Notes under the pieces: model-generated | Seen by the model: only the letters and a program-made list of their open reading frames with translations | Told to the model about the DNA's origin: nothing | Databases searched by the model: none | Assembly (NCBI GenBank): GCA_026692885.1 | Contig: JAPLNJ010000301.1 | Location: 1 to 14,378, forward strand | DNA length: 14,378 bases | Direction: 5' to 3' | Source: Planctomycetota bacterium | GTDB lineage: Bacteria; Planctomycetota; Planctomycetia; Pirellulales; Pirellulaceae | In this document: positions 1 through 14,377 of the stretch, one piece after another | How the letters are laid out: every line of letters starts with the position of its first letter | Numbering within the stretch: the first letter of the stretch is position 1 | Translations under genes and position numbers: made by a program

Positions 1-519
1 CAGGGTGAAACCCTGCCGCCGGATGAGCCGTTCGATCAGGTTCCAAAGTTCACCCGCAGCCAGCGTTCGCGTTCGCGGAGTGTTCCGCAGTTGTTCCATC
101 AACAGCTTGGGGATTCCATCCGCTTCCGTGGGCAGCCCCGCGAACTGGAGCAGCATCGCCAGGCAGTTGCCGTTCACGCCCGTTTGCCGGAGACACTGCA
201 TTTGTTTCAAGGCCGTGGTCTTGCCCACACCGGCGTCGATCGTCACGCACAGCCGGGTGACGGACATATCGCCCAAGAACTCACGGCGGCGGCGAGCTGG
301 GTAAGCGGGCCGGTTCGGGCCCGCTGGAGACGCGGGATTGATCAGCTCCCAACGGCACTCGCCGCTCGGTAGTCCGTGGACTGGGATCGGCTGCACGCCG
401 GTCGAATCCCCTGCATCGGGCAGCACCCCCAAGGGAACGGCCGCCAAGCAGTCCCACTGGAAATTCGGCGGGCACACGAGCCGCCACAATCGTTGCGCGG
501 CTATAAAGGGTGGGTGCAT
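1..519 (-). CDS. NACHT-family NTPase, N-terminal part (runs off left edge)
   Basis: The frame from ATG at 519 down to 1 is open for exactly 173 codons with no stop, so the gene continues outside the window. Residues 93-102 read TIDAGVGKTT, a P-loop (Walker A) in the style of NACHT/STAND NTPases, which act as ATP-driven switches in signalling and immune-like systems. The window ends at RLIRRQGFTL, just where a Walker B strand would be expected. The start is chosen because M-HPPFIAAQRL matches [13 protein letters not shown] at the start of the plus-strand NTPase at 1079, and the strand before the P-loop (RLCVTIDAGVGKTT) matches [14 protein letters not shown] there, so the two are paralogues. 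No clear Shine-Dalgarno precedes 519. A GGCGCCT element lies 118 nt upstream. The effector or sensor domain is outside the window and cannot be named. Confidence 0.8.
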   Translation of the reverse strand, partial: MHPPFIAAQRLWRLVCPPNFQWDCLAAVPLGVLPDAGDSTGVQPIPVHGLPSGECRWELINPASPAGPNRPAYPARRRREFLGDMSVTRLCVTIDAGVGKTTALKQMQCLRQTGVNGNCLAMLLQFAGLPTEADGIPKLLMEQLRNTPRTRTLAAGELWNLIERLIRRQGFTL

Positions 520-616
520 CGAAGAACGTCTCGTGGGGAGGAACAAAGCCTGGCGAACGGCAATATACCGTCTGCCACGGCCGTCGTCGACAGACGGCGG
601 TCGAGAGCAGACGCAG

Positions 617-642
617 GGACAGAAGTCTAAAGGCGCCAGAAA
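617..642 (-). promoter_or_regulatory. GGCGCCT upstream element, copy facing the minus-strand NACHT gene
   Basis: Read on the minus strand this is TTTCTGGCGCCTTTAGACTT followed by CTGTCC. Its GGCGCC begins 118 nt before the ATG at 519. It matches elements found upstream of the other genes in this window in the same orientation relative to the gene. Its function (promoter, operator or leader) is inferred from position only; no classical -35/-10 pair was recognised. Confidence 0.4.
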
Positions 643-670
643 CGGGGATTTGCTTGGCGTTTTTTCGCTG

Positions 671-696
671 CTGCGGCGCCTTGAGTCTCGTAGAGG
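671..696 (+). promoter_or_regulatory. GGCGCCT upstream element, copy facing the plus-strand NACHT unit
   Basis: The element contains GGCGCCTTGAGTCTCGTAGA plus GG, with GGCGCC starting 84 nt before the ATG at 759. It matches the copy at 6569-6590 at 19 of 22 positions, and all three differences are transitions. Together with the minus-strand copy at 617-642 it makes a divergent pair (AAGGCGCC at 630-637 against GGCGCCTT at 675-682) between the two NACHT units. A regulatory role is inferred from repetition and position. Confidence 0.45.
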
Positions 697-758
697 CAGC
701 GCGGCGTAGACCGGCTGTCGTGGATCTGCAACCAAATCGATGAAACAGGAGAAGCCCC

Positions 759-959
759 ATGTCCCTGGAATTGATGCCGCCCATCGTCGTCCCTAGGCCC
801 TTTCCCGTGTTGGAGAACCGCGAGCCGAGGGGGGGCGGTATGTCGGAGGAATTGGCCGAGGAAGCGCGGAAGTGGGTCAAACCGCAGCCGGAACGTCGCC
901 TACCGGAGCAGCCACAACTCGCCGTGTCCACTCCGCGGGTTCGATTTGACTTGGATTGA
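759..959 (+). CDS. small hypothetical protein, first gene of the plus-strand NACHT unit
   Basis: A 66-aa proline- and arginine-rich, charged product with no membrane segment, beginning MSLELMPPIVVPRPFPVLEN. I do not recognise a family. Support for it being real is a strong Shine-Dalgarno (AGGAGAA at 747-753, 5 nt before the ATG) and its place in the gap between the divergent promoter elements and the NACHT NTPase. Its TGA at 957-959 overlaps a possible TTG start at 956 of the NTPase frame, which would couple the two genes if that start is used. It could be a regulator or partner of the NTPase, or simply a leader ORF; nothing in the sequence decides this. Confidence 0.55.
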   Translation: MSLELMPPIVVPRPFPVLENREPRGGGMSEELAEEARKWVKPQPERRLPEQPQLAVSTPRVRFDLD

Positions 960-1078
960 TCAGACGTGGTGATACCGTGCTGTTGGGAGACGGGAACAAT
1001 CGCGATAATGGCCCGGACAGCCAGTTGCCCTCTCGGCTGTCCGTGCCCGACCGGTGGCCAATCACGAACCCCCAGACC

Positions 1079-2362
1079 ATGCCTGAAAAACCGCCGTTCA
1101 TCGCTTCGCAGCGGCTTCTGCTGCTCGACCCCAACGTGCCTGACCCACGGGAGTTTCTCTCGCCGGAGAAGTTCCGCGCAGCGCGATTGTCGGGTGTCGG
1201 CGACGAAGGCCGAGCAGGTGACGATCCAGACGCGAAGTACTGGCAGCCCATCGATCGCCGCAACCTGTTCTGCGACCCCTGTATCCGTCGACTGTGTGTC
1301 ACAACCGATGCCGGTGTGGGCAAGTCGACCATGCTGAAATGGGCCGCCCATGCCATTATGGCCCACGACCCGCGTACGTTGGCCATCTATATCCCACTGC
1401 GGGACCTTCCGGATTCGGCGGACAAGTATCTGGGGACAATCGATATGGATCCGAAGGCCCAGGCCATCGGGCCGCTCGTGATGGCCATGCTTCGGGACGG
1501 ACACAATGCCCGGCTCGATGAACCGGCACATTCCGCCAACGCGAAAACCTCGCGGCAGGTTGACGGACTGCGCGCCACTGACTCGTCGCGCATCGCCCAG
1601 TTGTTACGCCGGTTGGCCGCCCAGAGGCGACTGGTGCTGTTGGTGGACGCCCTGGACGAAATCAGCCGCCAGGCCGGTGACGAGGAGGCGGTGCCGAAAC
1701 GCGTGCAGGCCCTGCAGGATTTCCTGCAGACCGCGGGCCGCGGCTGCCGCGTGGTAATTGCCGGCCGGCCGTTTGCGATCGACCGGTACTGGGAAGCCCT
1801 GTTTGCACGAGGAGACTGGCGGTTTGCCCAGATTGATCATTTTGCCCCGCAGGAGCAGCAACAGTATCTCGGCTGGGATAGATACAGTCGCGTACTGGCA
1901 ACCGAGATCAAGATCATTTCCGTGCCGCGCGCACTGGAAGCGATTCGGCTCCTGCGGCCACAGCAACTCGACGACCTCCGGACCGCCAGCGACGTCTACT
2001 GGAACTGCGTGGACACAATGCTGAGCAAGGCGGCAACTGCCGAATTGATCGGGCAGGGATTTCGGGACGAGACTCTCCAGTGGCTGCTAGGGGCGTTGGC
2101 CTTTCAGATGGTCGTGGACGGCAATTTTGAGGGCGTTACGGAAGGTGAGTTCGGGAGCTTCTGTGACCGGGTCTGGCTTCGTCAGGCAGGCGAGCACCCG
2201 CGGCTCTGTAGCTCGCCGGAGAAGTTCCAATCGCTACTGGAGATGCTGGGCAAGACGATCGAGTTCCTGGATCACGGATTCCTGGACGGGCGGGGAATGA
2301 AGCAGGTGTTCTGGCGGAAGGCGACGGCACACTGGCAGGCACACCGCGGTCGACCGAAATGA
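1079..2362 (+). CDS. NACHT-family NTPase
   Basis: A 427-aa product from the ATG at 1079. Walker A is TDAGVGKST at residues 76-84. Walker B is [10 protein letters not shown] at 185-194, with the acidic run and following small residues typical of NACHT proteins. RVVIAGRP at 224-231 fits the sensor strand after it. The part after about residue 240 is helical and ends in [20 protein letters not shown] before an abrupt 3' end. The start at 1079 is preferred because [13 protein letters not shown] aligns with the start of the divergent paralogue at 519. An in-frame TTG at 956 would add 41 poorly folded-looking residues and overlap the upstream small gene. No good Shine-Dalgarno precedes either start. 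The stop overlaps the next ATG (ATGA), so the next protein is probably translationally coupled. In relatives I remember, this N-terminal part and an FGE-like domain lie in one polypeptide, so this gene may be the 5' half of a broken longer gene. Confidence 0.85.
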
Positions 2363-3288
2363 TCTACCGCTGTTACCAAACAGTTGACAGGTACGTGGCG
2401 AGCGAACGCCAACGACCGCAATTGGCCCTTAGATTTCAAGCCGAGTTCCAGGCTCGCTGCGTGGCGCCGTTTCAGGCGGAATTGCCGCAGCAGATCCTGA
2501 GTGGCCTGCGGGATCGTGCAGGGCTGCATGAACAATGCCAGCCAAGTTCTATTATGCGCGAGTTCCTGACCGTACGCGAAGGGCCGAAGAAGCAACCTAT
2601 TGGCTTTCGGCGCATCCCGCCGGATGACAGCCATTCGCTGCGATTTGTCATGGGATCGATGGAACGAGACAGTGAAGGTCCGCATCAAGTGGTCATCTTA
2701 GAAGCCTTTCTTGTGGCGTGCTCCCCGACGACGAACGAACAGTACGAACTTTTTGATCCTTCGCATCGGCAGCGAGCGGCGTGGGATGAGGGCTTGGACA
2801 TAGCGCCACGCGAAGACACATCGGACCGGTGCCCCGTCGTGTGGGTATCGTTTTACGATGCCTGGACCTACTGCCTATGGTTGGGGGAAGGCTATCGTTT
2901 GCCGAGCGAAGAGGAATGGGAATTCGCCTGCCGAGCGAGGAGCAAAACCCGCTGGTTTTTCGGCGACGACAAGGAGAGGCTGCGCGAATACGCCTGGTAT
3001 TCCGCGAATTCCGACAGAGTGACACACCCGGTTGGAGAACTCAAAGCCAACGAATGGGGCCTTTACGATGTGCACGGCAACGTGCGGGAATGGTGCGACA
3101 CACGTTGGAGCGTCCGCGGATCGACCCGTGTGTTGCGTGGCGGGTCGTGGGACGACACCGCGGGGTATGTGCGATCCGCGGCTCGCGACGATGGGCGTCC
3201 CGACTATCGTTGCAGCAGATTCGGTTTTCGTGTGGCCAGGATCCTAACTGAACACCCCTTTCCCTTATTTCCTTCTTCGCGAACGTAG
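2359..3288 (+). CDS. formylglycine-generating-enzyme-like (SUMF1/FGE-sulfatase, C-type lectin fold) protein, non-catalytic
   Basis: A 309-aa product starting in the ATGA overlap with the NACHT gene. Residues 1-80 are a helical linker. The FGE/SUMF1 domain runs from about 83 to 295, with RFVMGS (95-100), [12 protein letters not shown] (158-169), [15 protein letters not shown] (179-193), [14 protein letters not shown] (234-247) and [20 protein letters not shown] (260-279) ending in GFRVARI. True FGE oxidises a sulfatase cysteine using two active-site cysteines. In the matching stretch the RCAAR-type cysteine is Ser (RSAAR), the earlier one is missing, and GFRCA is GFRVA, so catalysis is unlikely and a ligand-binding role is more probable. 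Paired with the NACHT NTPase it may be the sensing or effector part of the same machine. Upstream of its ATG the same frame still encodes family-like sequence, suggesting it was once fused to the NTPase. Confidence 0.85.
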
Positions 3289-3784
3289 CGAGATTGCGAA
3301 AGACTCCCGGGGCACTGATTACGGTGCATGGATTCAGGATCCCGACGGCCTGGGTTTGCGGCCTGTCGATTCAATCGACAGCGGTCCAAAGTGCAAAAAA
3401 ACGCTAGCCAAAATAAGTTCCCGGATTCCACGCGGTGTGTCGCTGCTCGAAACGGCCGCGACCAACCACGGCCGCTACTCGCCAACGTTTTGAGCAGTGC
3501 TACGTTTCGAGTGGCCTGACACTGTTGGGAATCACGTTGAGTCCGGGTCGGTGAATCGTCCAGACCATTCCCAGCGGTGGCACGCTCCGCAAATCACACG
3601 CTGTCCACACCTCGTCTGTTATGCGCCTTGTCGAGACGCAAGAGCCGTGTTAAGGTCCTCTACTCCGTAACTGCCTTCCCGCGCGGCACGGCCTCGCATC
3701 CGGGCGGCCGTGCCTTCCCAGGCGAATCCCCGGAACGAACACGCGAAGGACGTTGCCAGCGGTTCTCCGATAATTCGTCACGCG
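3289..3784. other. gene-free stretch between convergent genes
   Basis: I see no convincing coding sequence on either strand. It separates the plus-strand FGE-like gene from the minus-strand membrane gene, so it should hold the ends of both transcripts. Two short inverted repeats are visible: CTGTCGATT/AATCGACAG at 3363-3381 with a one-base centre, and GGCACGGCC/GGCCGTGCC at 3685-3714 with a 12-nt loop. Neither is followed by a T run in the direction of its gene, so calling them intrinsic terminators would be a guess. Confidence 0.5.
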
Positions 3785-4123
3785 TCAGGACCGGGAAGTG
3801 GCTTCGTCCGTCGGCGCCTCGCCTTCGTCTTGGTGCCCGACGAACGAAGTCCAGCCGTCGATGAAGCTACTCACATCACGGGCCAACTGCTCTCCCGACT
3901 CCTGGACCATGGCGGTCGTGATGCGTCCCTGGGCCGCCAACAGCATCACCAGACAGGTGCAGACGTGCCCCGTGGCGCGCGCGGCGTGCTTGGCCAGCCA
4001 GCACCACGCTCGAGGCAAGCTGACTGCCGCAGCCAGAAAGCCGCCGGCGACGCAGGCCAGGACGATGATCCCCAAAACAGCTGCCCATTCTCGCGGAGCG
4101 AGATCCAATACGAACGCGTGCAT
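3785..4123 (-). CDS. small membrane protein, hypothetical
   Basis: A 112-aa product from the ATG at 4123, preceded on the minus strand by GAGGAG (4130-4135) six nt upstream, a strong ribosome binding site. Residues 13-34 (WAAVLGIIVLACVAGGFLAAAV) form a clear transmembrane helix; a weaker hydrophobic stretch at 52-64 could be a second. The remaining C-terminal part (about 70-112) is polar and acidic and would sit on one side of the membrane. I do not recognise a family. A GGCGCCT element lies 89 nt upstream of the start, so the gene appears to be transcribed on its own and not as part of the decayed ureohydrolase gene behind it. Confidence 0.6.
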   Translation of the reverse strand: MHAFVLDLAPREWAAVLGIIVLACVAGGFLAAAVSLPRAWCWLAKHAARATGHVCTCLVMLLAAQGRITTAMVQESGEQLARDVSSFIDGWTSFVGHQDEGEAPTDEATSRS

Positions 4124-4187
4124 GACTATCTCCTCAACAAAGAAACCGCTCGTGCTTGCCTCCCTTCCCTGGGATCCATTCCTCTCG

Positions 4188-4217
4188 TGCCTTCCGCAAG
4201 AAGAGAGGCGCCGGAAA
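4188..4217 (-). promoter_or_regulatory. GGCGCCT upstream element before the small membrane gene
   Basis: On the minus strand this reads TTTCCGGCGCCTCTCTTCTT followed by GCGGAAGGCA. GGCGCC begins 89 nt before the ATG at 4123. The TTCCGGCGCCT core is identical to the copies at 5124 and 6565. The function is inferred. Confidence 0.4.
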
Positions 4218-4297
4218 CGGACCGCCGTCCGAAATCTTCTGCGGCTGCGCCGGACGACTCAGAGTGCCAGGCGTTGGGCCAGAAACTGTTTGAGCAA

Positions 4298-4733
4298 TCA
4301 GATGACCGCGCGCGGTGGTTCCGTCTCCACCCGCCACGCGGATAAACTGAGGCTGGTGATCCGCATGGCGTTGCTCAGGAGGAACCCTTCCAGATCCCGT
4401 GCCGGGATGCCGCCCCTGGACGGATGGGTCACATTCGGAACATCCGCCAGGCGGTGGAGGCAATCCACGTCAATGTGCACGTGGGAAGCCCGCGGGATTC
4501 GCCGGGGGGGCGAGCGCAGCACACGGATGCCGGCCGCCTGCGTTCTCTCCCGCTCACCGGTGTCCCAATCGCGTCCGCCCACGTGGACGCATTCCCGCGG
4601 ACGAGAGGCGACTTTGCCGAGAAGTGCGACCAACCGATCGCAGGCGCGACCGGTGAGGGCGGCCAGGGGCATGCCCCCAGAAAGCCAGAGGCGGTCGTGA
4701 CTTCGTCGTTGTAGTCCCCGTAGGCGTCCGTCG
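4298..4733 (-). pseudogene. arginase/agmatinase (ureohydrolase) family remnant, C-terminal half, frameshifted
   Basis: Read from high to low coordinates, one frame gives TDAYGDYNDEVTTASGFLG (4733 to about 4675) and the next gives GGMPLAALTGRACDRLVALL, then VHVGGRDWDTGERERTQAAG, then SHVHIDVDCLHRLADVPNVT and HPSRGGIPARDLEGF, ending at a TGA at 4298. This is the order of arginase-fold enzymes, which hydrolyse guanidino groups using a dimanganese site: DAHxDxN, then the SGFxGGMPLAAL segment, then HxDxDxxDP. A single missing G in the GGGGG run at 4674-4678 would explain the frame change. DAHGD is DAYGD, so a metal ligand is lost, and the DP after the DVD motif is HR. The N-terminal half is not recognisable. 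The same reading frame stays open to 5221, but that part has no family resemblance. It looks like an old pseudogene; the frameshift alone could be a sequencing error. Confidence 0.6.
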
Positions 4734-4745
4734 GTCAAGCCGGCA

Positions 4746-5123
4746 TCGATCCAATCGAAATAGGTTCGGAACTGCGGATGGCTCTGGCGAAGTCCCGCCG
4801 CAAGATTCGTCCACCGCGGCTGGGCGTCCGGGCGGTGGGCTGTCGCGCCGCGACCCGTCTCAGCATGCCTCCGTCGATCTTCAATAACTTTGCTGGATTT
4901 CGCGTGGCCAGGGACCGTGACAAGAGTCGTTGACCCTTCCCTCCTCGGACGCGCGCCAAGCGTGCGCCAGACGGATCCCGTAGCGGCTTGATGCGAGCTG
5001 CCGGCCCGAACTGGCTTCTTCCGATAGGCCGAGTTCTGGCGAGCCACAGTCGCTGCCGGTGCGGCAGGCGCATGGGACCTATCGGCCTCGTACCCATTCG
5101 CCGCTGAGATGCTTCCGCTGGCA
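4746..5123. other. stretch without a recognisable gene
   Basis: It lies between the ureohydrolase remnant and the regulatory element at 5124. Long open frames cross it on the minus strand, but their translations are arginine/proline-rich composition products of GC-rich DNA and match nothing I know. It may include the unrecognisably decayed N-terminal half of the ureohydrolase gene. Confidence 0.4.
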
Positions 5124-5150
5124 TTCCGGCGCCTCTCTATAGGCGAAGGA
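5124..5150 (+). promoter_or_regulatory. GGCGCCT upstream element before the secreted 348-aa gene
   Basis: It reads TTCCGGCGCCTCTCTATAGG followed by CGAAGGA. GGCGCC starts 105 nt before the ATG at 5233. The first 14 bases are identical to the minus-strand copy at 4188-4217. The function is inferred. Confidence 0.4.
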
Positions 5151-5232
5151 CGGCCTTTATGGAACGTCCGCGGAGCGCGGAAAGCCGTCCCTGAGCAGCC
5201 ACAGCAGGCGATTTGTTTCACAGGGGGGAGTC

Positions 5233-6279
5233 ATGTTCGTATCCACTATTTGCCGTAGCGAAGTGTCGCGCGTCAGGGATGACAGTTCCCAAGTCAACTG
5301 GAACCCGTCGCTCATGGGTACACGGGTCGACAAGCAGCTGGCCCGCACTGCGGGGCCGGCGACGGCGTGGGGCGCCAGTTCGTGTTCCCCACGCTCGCGT
5401 CTCGTCCCTATCGCCCTCGGTTTGGCGGCCCTGCTGATACCCCAGCTCATCTTCGCTCAAGATCTGCGCCCGGGGTTGTGCACGCGGGGCATTGCAGAGC
5501 GATTGGACGAGGGAGAACCGCTGCTGCAGGCGATGATCGAGTCGGATGAGTACATCCAGTACACCCTCGATCGTCGTTTGGGCTGCCGCCGTCTGGGCAT
5601 GAACCTCGCGTCCACCCTGCGGTGCGGCAAAAACGCCGAGATCTACGAGGGGCGACAGGCTCTGTACCGTGGAATGCGCATCGATCGGCCATACTTCGAG
5701 CGCGACTATGTCTCCGGAACCGCCACCGACAAACTCCCGGTCAGCCGTTTCCAGAATCCCCTCTACGCTGTACGATTCGCCGAACTCCTGGGCCGCGCAG
5801 CAGCAGCTGCCAACATGGTTGTCGGACGCTGCTGTCCCCATGGCCACATGCTGTTCGACGATGGAGACGAGATCTTAGTGGAGGACGAACACGGCCTGCC
5901 CGTCGAATTGGTGGTTGCGGATTACACCGGCGCCTTTGCGGACTACGAGCGGAATTTCACTGACCTTGTGGCCACTTATCTGTGTCCCGTCAATACTCGT
6001 ATGGAACACATGCCAAACCCAGCAGTCTTCAGTGGGGCTTACGTCAACGCCCTCGTCACGAAACTGGGCGAGATCCAACAGAAATACCGCGAGCAGAAGC
6101 GGGCCTTCGATACCCTGTTTGCCCACCGGCACCGTGACCATCCCGGTAGCCTTGCTTATCGTTGGGATCGGATCCTGTCGCGTCTGGCGGCGGCGAACCT
6201 GGAAGAATTGGAGCGGGAGCTGCGTAGACAGTCAGCCAGCCAAATGCGAAGTACTGAAGGGGCAGTGCCCTCGCCATGA
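5233..6279 (+). CDS. secreted or membrane-anchored protein of unknown family, possible ADP-ribosyltransferase-like fold
   Basis: A 348-aa product with a strong Shine-Dalgarno (AGGGGGGAG, 5222-5230) just before the ATG. Residues 57-75 (LVPIALGLAALLIPQLIFA) form a hydrophobic export signal or anchor after an unusually long, basic N-region; a start at Met28 (5314) would shorten it. A signal-peptidase site is plausible at FA/QD. The mature part is rich in charged residues and has several cysteines (83, 118, 131, 200, 201, 251), suiting an extracytoplasmic protein. ALYRGMRI (143-150), PVSRFQNPLYAVRFAE (169-184) and DEILVED (212-218) appear in the order and rough spacing of the R-S-E motifs of arginine-type mono-ADP-ribosyltransferases, but the S and E motifs are imperfect, so this is a weak suggestion. 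A coiled-coil-like charged C-terminus (275-335) follows. It stands alone as a transcription unit. Confidence 0.75.
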   Translation: MFVSTICRSEVSRVRDDSSQVNWNPSLMGTRVDKQLARTAGPATAWGASSCSPRSRLVPIALGLAALLIPQLIFAQDLRPGLCTRGIAERLDEGEPLLQAMIESDEYIQYTLDRRLGCRRLGMNLASTLRCGKNAEIYEGRQALYRGMRIDRPYFERDYVSGTATDKLPVSRFQNPLYAVRFAELLGRAAAAANMVVGRCCPHGHMLFDDGDEILVEDEHGLPVELVVADYTGAFADYERNFTDLVATYLCPVNTRMEHMPNPAVFSGAYVNALVTKLGEIQQKYREQKRAFDTLFAHRHRDHPGSLAYRWDRILSRLAAANLEELERELRRQSASQMRSTEGAVPSP

Positions 6280-6687
6280 CGATCGCATAAACAAGAATCC
6301 GTCTTGGCTTCGGGGGCAGGCCGGTCGGCTGACCGCTGCCAACAACCAAACGCGCCCGCCGTCCGACGCCCTCCGCGTTGACGTTTTGCGGGTGGGGATC
6401 GCCGGCTGGCTGACTGTCTTGCTGCGCGACCTCGCAGCAGCGGCGTGCGGTGCCTGACGCAGCCCCCCCCTCGCCCGTCCGGAGACGGTGATCCCGCGTC
6501 CTGTTTCGCCGGTCCCCGTGTCCGCGACCGGTTCTTTTTCGATCAAGCAAGCCAACTGGATGCTTTCCGGCGCCTTAAGTCTTGTAAAGGGCAAGAACCG
6601 GGGGCAGCCGTGGAAGGCTGCTGACTCGTGGGGGAACGTCGGACCTCCGCGAGTATGCCGAACATTTCCGATCGGGAGGGCAACGCG
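6280..6687. other. gene-free stretch after the secreted protein gene
   Basis: No convincing gene on either strand; overlapping frames here are short or antisense and lack start signals. It holds a short hairpin, TGCTGCG/CGCAGCA at 6420-6439, without a T run, and the GGCGCCT element at 6565-6595. Confidence 0.5.
6565..6595 (+). promoter_or_regulatory. GGCGCCT upstream element before the short ORF and the giant peptidase
   Basis: It reads TTCCGGCGCCTTAAGTCTTG followed by TAAAGGGCAAG. GGCGCC lies 119 nt before the ATG at 6688 and 386 nt before the ATG at 6955. It matches the copy at 675-696 at 19 of 22 positions. It may drive the short ORF and the peptidase together; this is inference. Confidence 0.45.
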
Positions 6688-6804
6688 ATGAATTCCCCCA
6701 CTCAGCGTCGGTTCAAGGTGCATGACCATTCCAGCCGGGTTCGGCATTCTGGCTGCCGCAGGTTGAGATCCCTGCAGCTGGCCACACTAAAATCTCCGCG
6801 TTAG
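6688..6804 (+). CDS. short ORF with strong ribosome binding site (38 aa)
   Basis: The ATG at 6688 is preceded by GGGAGGG (6674-6680) at 7 nt, one of the best Shine-Dalgarno matches in the window. The product is 38 residues and very basic, starting MNSPTQRRFKVHDHSS and ending with RRLRSLQLATLKSPR. It could be a leader peptide for the peptidase gene that begins 150 nt later. It also resembles the basic N-terminal run before the LExRxLL signature of planctomycete exported proteins: another frame just after it reads ALESR, so it may be the stump of a second such gene. Composition alone cannot separate these. Confidence 0.35.
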   Translation: MNSPTQRRFKVHDHSSRVRHSGCRRLRSLQLATLKSPR

Positions 6805-6954
6805 AGTCGCGTGCCGGCAGCACCAAAGCCATGACGGGACCTTCTTCCGCCGTCAGTTGAGAAGGTCGGTTGCGGTGTAAGTGTTGGACATATTGGACTG
6901 CTGTTGGAGCCAAAGTCGGTCGTGTTTTTCTGACTTCTTCAAAGGATTCAAGCT

Positions 6955-9900
6955 ATGATGCCGTTCAAAGGACCTCATTGCCCACCTATCGTACGGGCCA
7001 CATCTCCAAAAGCCAAGCGTGGTCGCCGAAAGAAGCTGTCCGCGCGCCGTGCTCTACAAGTCGAGTCCCTCGAAACCCGCTTGCTTCTGGAGGGAGCACC
7101 GGTAGCAGCAACGAGTAACTTCGTCGTCGTGCGAGACGACGGCGCCGGACTGTTCTTGCACCTGGGAAACAGCGATAATGACCCCGGCGAGGAATTCAGC
7201 TCCCGCTTCGGTTTCGCCGAATCGTCACCCTACACAAACGAGGCCCACCGGATACTCTACGGCGATATGTCGGGACGTGGTGTCGATCGACCGGTCGCCG
7301 TCCAAAAATCCGGTGTTGGTCTCGAGTGGTTCGTCCAAGACGACGACGACACCGATGTCGAGTACCGTTTCCAATTTGGACTGAGCCCCGATTTAGTGTT
7401 AATCCGTGACTTCAACGGGAACTTGACGGATGACGTAGCTGTTGCTCGTCCTGGGCGATTTGACGCCGCCGTAGGGCTGCGCGTATATCAGTGGTATGTG
7501 GCTTACGACCCCTTCCGTGCCAAGGAGAGCGGGGCCGATGGTGGTCTCTTGTCCGTCGACTATGTCTTCGAGTACGGCTACGACGGGGATACGTTGCTGG
7601 TCGGTGACTGGAATGGCGATGGGAAAAGTGAGCCGGGGCTTGTGTCGCAGAATACGACTGTCCTCGGTAATCAGACCCTCATGCAGTGGTATCTGGACGG
7701 TGTTTCCTTCCCATTCGGCATTCCACCCGCGAAACCCGTGGTCGGTGACTGGGACGGCGATGGTCGCGATAACGTCGGGGTCGTTGAAGAGTATCCCGGT
7801 CAGCCGTTTCCTAACAACATTTCCCTGTGGTTGCTGCACCTAAATCGTGACCCTCACGCGGAAGGTCAATTCCGTTACGGTCTGCCCGACGATCAATACT
7901 TTACGGGACAACTGGACCAACCCGATATATTGATTGATGACGTCAGTGTTACCGAGGGAGACAGCGGAACCGGCAATCTTGTCTTCACTGTCAGTTTGTC
8001 CCACGCAAGCCAAGTGCCGGTAACCGTCGATTTCACCACCTCGGACTACACGGCCAGCCAGGGCAGTGACTACAACCCGGTGAGCGGACGTCTGACATTT
8101 CTTCCGCCAACATCGGGAAACATCGGGGAAACGTCCAAGACGATCAATGTACCAGTAAAAGGGGACGACCTGGTCGAGGGAGCGGAGAGCTTTCATCTGA
8201 GGCTCAGCAATCCGGTGGGCGCTCGTTTGCCGGACAATATCGGCATCGGATCGATCCGCGACAACGATGGCGCACTGCTCAGCATCTCGGACGTCGTGCG
8301 AAATGAAGGGGCGAGTGGAAGCACGGAGTTCCGCTTCCTGATTAGCTCCACAAAACCCATCGATACACCCATTGAAGCACGCCTACGAACGCGTGATGGC
8401 ACAGCGCGCGGCGACAGCGACTATGTGCCAGTCGACAAGACGATTGTCATTCCAGCGGGCCAACTGTCCACATCGTCGTCAGTCAGTGTCACGGGTGACC
8501 TGATGGTCGAGTTGGACGAAACCTTCTCCGTCGAACTCAGCAGCATTCAGGCGTTGGGCCGAGATGTGCGTCCGGGCAATGTGGTGGGTACTGGCACGAT
8601 TCTCAACGACGACAGCGCCCACTTCCAAGTGCAAGTGTCTAACGCGTCCGCTCGTGAATCTCTCGGACAGATGCCATTTATAGTCACACTGTCCAACCCG
8701 GTTGACGTCGAGACGCGAGTGGTGGTATCCACTGCAGACGGTTCCGCTTCAACAGCCGATCGCGACTATCAGCCGCTCGCACAGGAGGTGACGTTTCCAG
8801 CCGGCGTCACCGAGCGCACGGTGCCGGTGACCATCAATGACGACGCCCAAGTCGAGCTCGATGAGACTTTCTTTGTAAACATCTCGGGCATACAGTCCAG
8901 CGAGCGGGCGGTCAACCTTGGTGCAGGGGGGCAGGGTGTCATTGTGAACGACGATTTCGCCATCATCGAGATCATCAGCGATGTGCAACGAGTGGAAGGT
9001 GATTCGGGCACAACTGCGTTTACTTTCGGCGTCCGGCTAAGCAATCCGGTCGATGCACCAATCGACGTCCGGTTCACCACGACGGGGGGCGCTGCGGCGG
9101 AGGGCAAGGCGACGGAAGGCGATGATTTTCGACGGGTAAATGACGTGATCTCATTCTCCCGCGGAGAATCAGGCACTCGAACGATATCTGTGGATGTTAT
9201 CGGCGACGTTGTCCCTGAGGGGGACGAGTTTTTTTTCATGAATCTTGCCGATTTGCATGTCCATTCGCGGGATGTACGAATGGGAGCCGACCAACGACGG
9301 GGAATCATCAAGGACGATGACGTGATGGGCTCGATCTCAGGCACGAAATTCGAGGACTCTAACGGCAACGGTATGCGTGATCAGAACGAAACCGGTCTGC
9401 CGAACTGGACGATTTTTGTGGACGCAAATGGGGACGGTGTATTGAACTCGCACGTCCAGGTGCCCGTTGAATCGACCAACATCCCCGTACCCATTCGCGA
9501 TCGCACGACGTCCCGATCCCAATTGATCGTTACGGGACTTGTCGGGCCGGTTGGCGACGTCGATCTTAAGCTTGATATCACGCATACGTATGTGGCCGAT
9601 TTGACGGCTACGCTGATCAGTCCACTTGGCACGCGGGTTATGCTGTTTAGCCGCGTTGGAGGTCTGGGCGCTAACTTTACAAATACCATATTGGACGACG
9701 AAGCTGAGTTTGGCATTGGCGAGGGTATTTCACCTTTCGCAGGGCGGTTTCGGCCGACAGTTTCTCTTGCCAACCTGGTCGGAGAAGATCCCAACGGCAT
9801 TTGGACGCTGGAGATATCTGACAACGAACTGAGGGATGAGGGATCCCTTAATAGCTGGTCGCTCGATATATCTACCGCGGTCTGTGACGCCAATGCAGCT

Positions 9901-14035: not shown

Positions 14036-14156
14036 TTCCCTGCCCAGGCCCAGCTGTTTACACCGATTGGACGACGATTCAGCGGCTGAACGAGGAGCGA
14101 AAACAAAGTCGCCTTAGGAGCGGCGAATCAATAACTGTCAGGACATCGCGTGCGGC

Positions 14157-14228
14157 CTCGTTTAACCCGGAGCCAACGGCGACGGCGGTTCGGCCCGCGC
14201 CGTCGCCGTTGGCTCCGGGTTAAACGAG
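14157..14228. repeat. perfect 31-bp inverted repeat (long hairpin), REP/MITE-like
   Basis: The left arm 14157-14187 (CTCGTTTAACCCGGAGCCAA then CGGCGACGGCG) is the exact reverse complement of the right arm 14198-14228, around a 10-nt centre (GTTCGGCCCG). No mismatch was found in 31 pairs; pairing ends at C14156/A14229. Each arm's outer part contains TTTAA, so the element supplies TAA stops in reads crossing it. It lies at the 3' end of the minus-strand ORF entering from the right. It is too long and perfect for an ordinary terminator and has no T run; a mobile or dispersed intergenic palindrome is the best guess. Confidence 0.9.
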
Positions 14229-14377
14229 ACACTTATTGCTTCGCCGGTCCTTAGTATCTCGCATCCCGCAGCCACCGTCAACGTTCCGATGGCCAGCAGG
14301 TTACGTGGGTGGTGGCCAGGATCTGCTCGGAATACATCCAGTACTGTGAACGTGGCGTCGTCAACGGAATGGTCAGC
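14162..14377 (-). CDS. C-terminal part of an unidentified protein (enters from right edge)
   Basis: A minus-strand frame is open from the right edge for 71 codons to a TAA at 14162-14164. It reads ADHSVDDATFTVLDVFRADP, then NLLAIGTLTVAAGCEILRTG, then EAISVSFNPE, which looks like a folded beta-rich protein. The final residues (about EPTATARAEPPSPLAPG) and the stop codon come from the inverted repeat at 14157-14228, so the natural C-terminus may have been replaced by it. No family recognised. The frame could also be chance, given only 72 codons. Confidence 0.4.
   Translation of the reverse strand, partial: ADHSVDDATFTVLDVFRADPGHHPRNLLAIGTLTVAAGCEILRTGEAISVSFNPEPTATARAEPPSPLAPG

What the first reader, a model, noticed from the sequence alone, without database searches (positions are those of the whole stretch)
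617..6595. A shared GGCGCCT element 84-119 nt upstream of every non-operonic start I trust here, always in gene orientation
Five intergenic copies were found by eye: minus strand 617-642 (start 519), plus 671-696 (start 759), minus 4188-4217 (start 4123), plus 5124-5150 (start 5233), plus 6565-6595 (start 6688, then 6955). Three share TTCCGGCGCCTY exactly; the fourth (617-642) has TTCTGGCGCCTT. The 671 and 6569 copies agree at 19/22 positions with only transitions. Several continue with CTTG or CTCG and RAGG about 10-15 nt later. Distances from GGCGCC to the start codon are 84, 118, 89, 105 and 119 nt. The genes are unrelated, so this is not paralogy. It could be a planctomycete promoter class, a dispersed operator, or a conserved 5' leader. 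A looser look-alike lies about 85 nt before the sulfatase stump on the minus strand (around 14100-14120).
Basis: seen in the sequence. Interest (0 to 1): 0.7.

Follow-up and report, generated by a model that had tools for sequence, protein, structure and literature searches.

The report
Short shared DNA element before genes
Five genes or gene groups in this bacterial DNA stretch carry the same short sequence at a similar place in front of them, most likely a switch or landing site for starting transcription; the match is far beyond chance here, but it is not seen as a common element in the relatives that could be searched.

Summary
Five non-coding copies of a ~27-nt directional element (roughly TTCYGGCGCCTY-N4-CTTG-N2-RAGG; the second block is imperfect) lie 84-119 nt before start codons, all in gene orientation. 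Over five upstream regions the shared motif exceeds all 2000 dinucleotide shuffles (z about 9). Similarity stops at the core, I see no common RNA fold, and the five-copy matrix finds no sixth site in the window.

The wider reading is not supported. None of 392 sampled phylum genomes has more than 20 TTCCGGCGCCTY (reversed control up to 47). The longer form is in 2 of 397 class genomes (reversed control 7). In relatives the core lies mostly inside ORFs. One suggestive exception: a 15/16 match before a homologue of the window's NACHT gene, 1 of 30 scanned. "Genes unrelated" is partly wrong: genes behind the first two copies are homologous.

Best reading: a lineage-restricted promoter or activator-type site, 0.45. 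No transcript data and no source genome were available, so function is untested.

The parts
616..642 (-). element copy 1 (TTTCTGGCGCCTTTAGACTTCTGTCCC; second block poor), GGCGCC 118 nt before the start at 519
   Evidence: 15/16 match of its first 16 letters before a NACHT homologue in G007
670..696 (+). element copy 2 (GCTGCGGCGCCTTGAGTCTCGTAGAGG), divergent to copy 1; 84 nt before 759, 404 nt before 1079
   Evidence: 0.78 identical to copy 5 over the core
4191..4217 (-). element copy 3 (TTTCCGGCGCCTCTCTTCTTGCGGAAG), 89 nt before the start at 4123
5123..5149 (+). element copy 4 (ATTCCGGCGCCTCTCTATAGGCGAAGG), 105 nt before the start at 5233
6564..6590 (+). element copy 5 (TTTCCGGCGCCTTAAGTCTTGTAAAGG), 119 nt before 6688, 386 nt before 6955
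1..519 (-). gene behind copy 1: N-terminal piece of a NACHT-like protein (runs off the window)
759..959 (+). small ORF (66 aa) between copy 2 and the NACHT gene; reality unproven, codon-position GC like the larger genes
1079..3288 (+). NACHT ATPase gene and overlapping FGE-sulfatase gene
   Evidence: Pfam; homologues; start supported by the homologues' N-termini (PPxIASQ)
3785..4123 (-). gene behind copy 3: 112-aa protein with a hydrophobic stretch, no Pfam family
5233..6279 (+). gene behind copy 4: 348-aa protein without Pfam family, 97 homologues apart from itself among the candidates scored
6955..12927 (+). gene behind copy 5: 1990-aa Calx-beta / M36 metallopeptidase protein (small ORF 6688-6804 in between)

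Best explanation
A short, directional DNA element that acts at transcription initiation: most likely a promoter (read by an alternative or lineage-specific sigma factor) or the promoter-proximal part of one, shared by a set of accessory genes (NACHT, FGE, large M36 protein, two unknowns) in the source lineage. The strongly conserved block TTCCGGCGCCT would be the upstream contact and the weaker block at +12 to +21 (CTTG-N2-RAGG) the downstream contact, with transcription starting a little further down and leaving leaders of very roughly 50-90 nt. Shown: the shared core, its orientation, its distance to starts, its confinement to about 27 nt. Inferred: that a protein binds it, that this is a sigma factor, and the start sites.
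For: Motif far beyond shuffles (0 of 300 at each of seven motif lengths; 0 of 2000). Five of five non-coding GGCGCCT copies point at the next gene. Identity between copies falls to 0.16-0.40 outside the core, as for a protein-binding site and unlike a longer copied repeat. Two copies are back to back in the divergent region 520-758, as promoters of divergent genes would be. No sigma-70-like promoter overlaps a copy (2 found in 500-7000, 1.3 expected). A near-identical 16-mer stands 69 nt before the start of a NACHT homologue in another planctomycete.
Against: No transcript 5' ends. No source genome, so five copies in 14 kb is all there is. The second block is imperfect (CTTG in 2 of 5, RAGG in 3 of 5) and poor in A+T for a melting region. 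One sigma-70-like site (590-562, minus) lies between copy 1 and its gene and could be that gene's promoter. The element was not found for 29 of 30 NACHT homologues scanned (for 15 of the 26 rows the match began more than 30 residues into the query, and in several the open frame ran far upstream, so the stretch scanned may not be the true upstream region). No GGCGCC within 800 nt before the match of the G614 homologue of the 5233 protein. No sampled relative uses it as a common element.
Confidence: 0.45

Rival explanations
1. Operator of a dispersed regulator: a transcription factor binds the element beside separate ordinary promoters, making the genes one regulon.
For: Same statistics; the core holds the palindrome GGCGCC; distance to the start varies by 35 nt (coordinates); one sigma-70-like site lies between copy 1 and its gene.
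Against: The full element is not a palindrome and has one orientation in all five copies, which dimeric operators do not need; no sigma-70-like promoter sits at a fixed place beside the copies.
Confidence: 0.27
2. Part of a conserved 5' leader RNA or leader-peptide region acting after transcription starts.
For: Small ORFs follow copies 2 and 5; GCCT and AGGC could pair in some copies (my reading).
Against: Minimum-energy folds of the five leaders show no common stem to my eye, with z-scores of -1.85, 0.76, -0.05, -0.74, -2.07; no Rfam match at the copies; the sequence downstream of the core is not conserved.
Confidence: 0.08
3. Dispersed mobile or palindromic repeat that happens to lie between genes.
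For: A repeat holding TTTTCTGGCGCC sits near contig ends in G007.
Against: Similarity is confined to 27 nt with flanks at random level, and all five copies are oriented with the next gene; the sampled genomes do not carry a family of it.
Confidence: 0.08
4. Chance resemblance selected by eye in GC-rich upstream DNA.
Against: 0 of 2000 shuffles at k 12 and 22, twice; 0 of 2000 sets of separate coding segments; 0 of 500 with longer regions and the large-ORF starts, though the best shuffle came within one point.
Confidence: 0.1

Closest known systems
Extracytoplasmic-function (ECF) sigma factor promoters (recalled; only review titles and abstract starts were seen)
   Same: Two blocks in a 25-30 nt directional site with a strong upstream block; planctomycetes are recalled as rich in ECF factors.
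   Different: Core GGCGCC is not the recalled GGAAC-type -35 and no recalled CGT/GTC-type -10 is shared; no start sites are known.
Sigma-54 promoters (recalled consensus TGGCAC-N5-TTGC)
   Same: GG followed by TTG or CTTG in some copies.
   Different: The recalled fixed GG-N10-GC spacing is met in 0 of 5 copies (letters at +12/+13 are CT, CT, CT, TA, CT).
Sigma-70 promoters as predicted for Planctopirus limnophila (PMC11958385, passages seen)
   Same: Upstream promoter site with two blocks.
   Different: That paper compares software-predicted -35/-10 boxes with the sigma-70 consensus; no such pair overlaps a copy here.

Membership tests
Sigma-54 promoter | GG and GC dinucleotides exactly 10 nt apart (recalled) | tested here: not met
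   0 of 5 copies have GC at +12/+13
Sigma-70 promoter | TTGACA/TATAAT-like boxes 16-18 nt apart at the element | tested here: not met
   only 590-562 minus (between copy 1 and its gene) and 6930-6959 plus found, neither overlapping a copy; 2 against 1.3 expected; the scan needs 9 of 12 letters
ECF-type promoter | two-block directional site of about 28 nt (recalled) | tested here: inconclusive
   Two blocks seen but the second is imperfect
ECF-type promoter | transcription start a few nt downstream of the second block | not testable with these tools
   No transcript data
ECF-type promoter | known group-specific -35/-10 words and a cognate ECF gene | not tested
   No source genome held; group motifs not read in any paper
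Known structured RNA leader | match to an Rfam family | tested here: not met
   three weak matches, all below gathering score, none at a copy
Planctomycete-wide promoter class | many intergenic copies in other planctomycete genomes | tested here: not met
   392 genomes; 397; 199; stretches of two genomes; 0 of 28 hits outside ORFs; a sample of the phylum, not all of it

The most novel reading that the evidence does not exclude
A private promoter class of an unsampled planctomycete lineage: an unusual sigma factor reading TTCCGGCGCCT-N5-CTTG-N2-RAGG drives a set of NACHT/FGE conflict genes and giant secreted proteins as one regulon, with traces surviving in front of NACHT genes of distant relatives.
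Probability: 0.2. Interest if true: 0.5.

Novelty: new member of a known kind. Interest (0 to 1): 0.3.

Why it matters
Promoter words of planctomycetes seem little mapped: the seven literature searches that gave listings showed no title that announces a transcription-start map for the phylum, though they cover open papers only and few terms. A motif that marks transcription starts without RNA data would let regulons be read from metagenomes. If it links NACHT genes with secreted proteins it would also hint at how such genes are switched on.

Tried and rejected
Exact long pattern in genome contigs: 0 hits. A 20-letter pattern in viral contigs: 0. Region 5090-5236 against plasmids: 4 records, E 5, chance level. 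Some genomes exceeded their reversed control (for example G294, 18 against 1); six were followed, others such as G195, G024 and G233 were not. Of the six genomes' 68 places 30 were fetched and 29 of 30 lay inside ORFs of a simple ORF caller, so I read that excess as codon usage. G007: GGCGCC outside ORFs 8, 7.2 expected (257,432 bases in 21 loci, one of them fetched by pattern). TTYYTGGCGCC in G007: 41 places against 13 for the reversed control; 30 fetched, 5 outside ORFs, of which three are a repeat near contig ends and one is the NACHT site. G614, holding the only match to the 5233 protein among 382 class genomes (54%): TTYYGGCGCCTY 19 against 22 for the control; GGCGCC outside ORFs 16 against 37 expected in 299,879 bases; none within 800 nt before that match. 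Twelve genomes with NACHT or FGE matches: 28 core hits against 21 for the control, 0 of 28 outside ORFs. TTTCYGGCGCCYTNAG: 2 of 199 genomes, the reversed control in 19. Matrix scan of the loci held by then (1,510,077 bases): 87 hits above 11 against 64 for the reversed matrix; the best hit, non-coding, lies in a locus fetched by pattern.

The G007 match could be chance: apart from three rows of that same place and one pattern-fetched locus, the loci scanned gave 4 places at 14/16 and none at 15/16 in 3.39 million strand-bases, so about 0.02 or fewer would be expected in 30 stretches of 500 nt (the rows removed by me afterwards; the loci include many non-planctomycetes of other base composition). 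The ORF caller is crude and over-calls ORFs, which lowers every 'outside ORF' count.

In one search the NACHT query was translated one base out of frame by mistake; its missing row there means nothing.

Full report
What is there. The window (14,378 bases, 59.7% GC) holds five copies of a short element, read in gene orientation: 616-642 (-), 670-696 (+), 4191-4217 (-), 5123-5149 (+), 6564-6590 (+). Anchored on GGCGCCT (positions 0-6), columns with at least 4 of 5 identical letters are TTCC at -4 to -1, GGCGCCT at 0-6, and C12, T13, G15, A19, G21. Letters at +12 to +15 are CTTC, CTCG, CTTG, TAGG, CTTG, and at +18 to +21 TCCC, GAGG, GAAG, AAGG, AAGG (copies 1-5), so the second block is a tendency, not a rule. 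Copies 2 and 5 are the closest pair over the core (0.78), then copies 3 and 4 (0.74); outside the core all pairs fall to 0.16-0.40.

Is it more than chance? Yes within the window. GGCGCCT: 9 found, 3.08 expected. TTCCGGCGCCTY with one mismatch: 5 found, 0.28 expected, 0 of 200 shuffles. The best common word over the five upstream regions beats 300 of 300 shuffles at each of seven lengths from 8 to 26 (200-nt regions, two of which overlap on opposite strands) and 2000 of 2000 at lengths 12 and 22 (130-nt regions, a 21-nt overlap). With strictly separate regions it again beats 2000 of 2000 (z 9.2 and 8.8). Sets of five random coding segments reached the score 1 of 2000 times if overlaps were allowed and 0 of 2000 if not.

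The genes. Minus 519 and plus 1079 are homologous NACHT-type genes (N-termini of homologues). The plus gene overlaps an FGE-sulfatase gene. 4123 (minus) and 5233 have no Pfam family; 6955 is a 1990-aa Calx-beta/M36 protein. Small ORFs at 759 and 6688 lie between copies 2 and 5 and the large genes; nothing here proves that they are translated (codon-position GC fits for 759).

Relatives. No genome of the source is held. The best-scoring homologues are distant: 58% over 95% of the M36 part (64-65% over about 70% in two others), 56% over 88% for NACHT, 53% over 72% for 5233. Exact TTCCGGCGCCTY occurs in 334 of 392 phylum genomes but at most 20 times; the reversed control goes up to 47. Three exact copies in 14.4 kb would by simple proportion mean about a thousand in 5 Mb. 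The long form GGCGCCTTNAGTCTNGT is in 2 of 397 class genomes, the reversed control in 7. TTTCYGGCGCCYTNAG is in 2 of 199 genomes of the family of G007, the reversed control in 19. Fetched core hits lie inside ORFs in 29 of 30, 25 of 30 and 28 of 28 cases.

One of the two genomes is G007 (MAG Planctomycetaceae F1-80-MAGs021, the genome of L022), where TTTCTGGCGCCCTTAG stands 69 nt before the start of a NACHT-FGE homologue; copy 1 of the window, in front of a NACHT gene, reads TTTCTGGCGCCTTTAG. This is 1 of 30 distinct homologous genes scanned (5; 26 rows, one of them the same gene). For 15 of those 26 rows the match began more than 30 residues into the query, and for five the open frame ran more than 600 nt upstream of the match, so the 500 nt scanned may not be their true upstream region. 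The family pattern was written after seeing this hit, so its rarity there is not an independent test. The background rate makes chance unlikely but not excluded. In G007 at large the element is not a family.

Mechanism. The fixed orientation, the limited range of distance to starts, the back-to-back pair in the divergent region and the sharp limits of similarity are those of a protein-read site at transcription initiation. The layout over about 27 nt resembles an alternative-sigma promoter in geometry, not in letters; sigma-54 spacing is not met and no sigma-70 pair overlaps a copy, though one weak pair lies between copy 1 and its gene. An operator is the main rival. A structured leader is disfavoured. 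I hold the promoter reading at 0.45.

Literature. Seven searches gave listings. Fourteen listed papers hold both GGCGCC and a planctomycete word; none was opened, and by title and start of abstract none is about planctomycete promoters. Passages of one paper were seen (PMC11958385), which compares software-predicted boxes of P. limnophila promoters with the sigma-70 consensus. ECF and sigma-54 consensus words are recalled.

Verdict. A real, well-observed local motif; its phylum-wide reading is not supported in the sample searched; most likely an ordinary kind of thing (a promoter or operator) in an unsampled lineage.

Noticed in passing
2340-2362 (NACHT gene end) and 2359 (FGE gene start): Three NACHT homologues read in full (P0220-P0222) have NACHT and FGE fused in one protein, with a stretch of very roughly 70 residues between the window's two ORFs that is missing here, so the window's gene pair may be a deleted and split form of a fused gene, or an assembly fault.
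   Followed up: partly
14155-14229: Long near-perfect hairpin palindrome (AACCCGGAGCCAACGGCGACGGCG and its complement); Rfam's MIR5534 match there is below the gathering score and probably reflects the hairpin only.
   Followed up: no
L248, L249, L250, L257 (near contig ends of G007): The repeat TGGTACCTTTTCTGGCGCCTATTACTGGTACCTTTTCAGCGCTCAGTGACA sits near the end of four contigs, like the end of a multi-copy mobile element.
   Followed up: no
L154 / L179 (upstream of the NACHT homologue in G007): A long inverted repeat around GTGGGATAAGCTTCCAGCTTGTCAA lies just upstream of the element-bearing NACHT start.
   Followed up: no
1-519 (-) and 1079-2362 (+): Two homologous NACHT-type genes stand in divergent orientation with back-to-back element copies between them.
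   Followed up: partly
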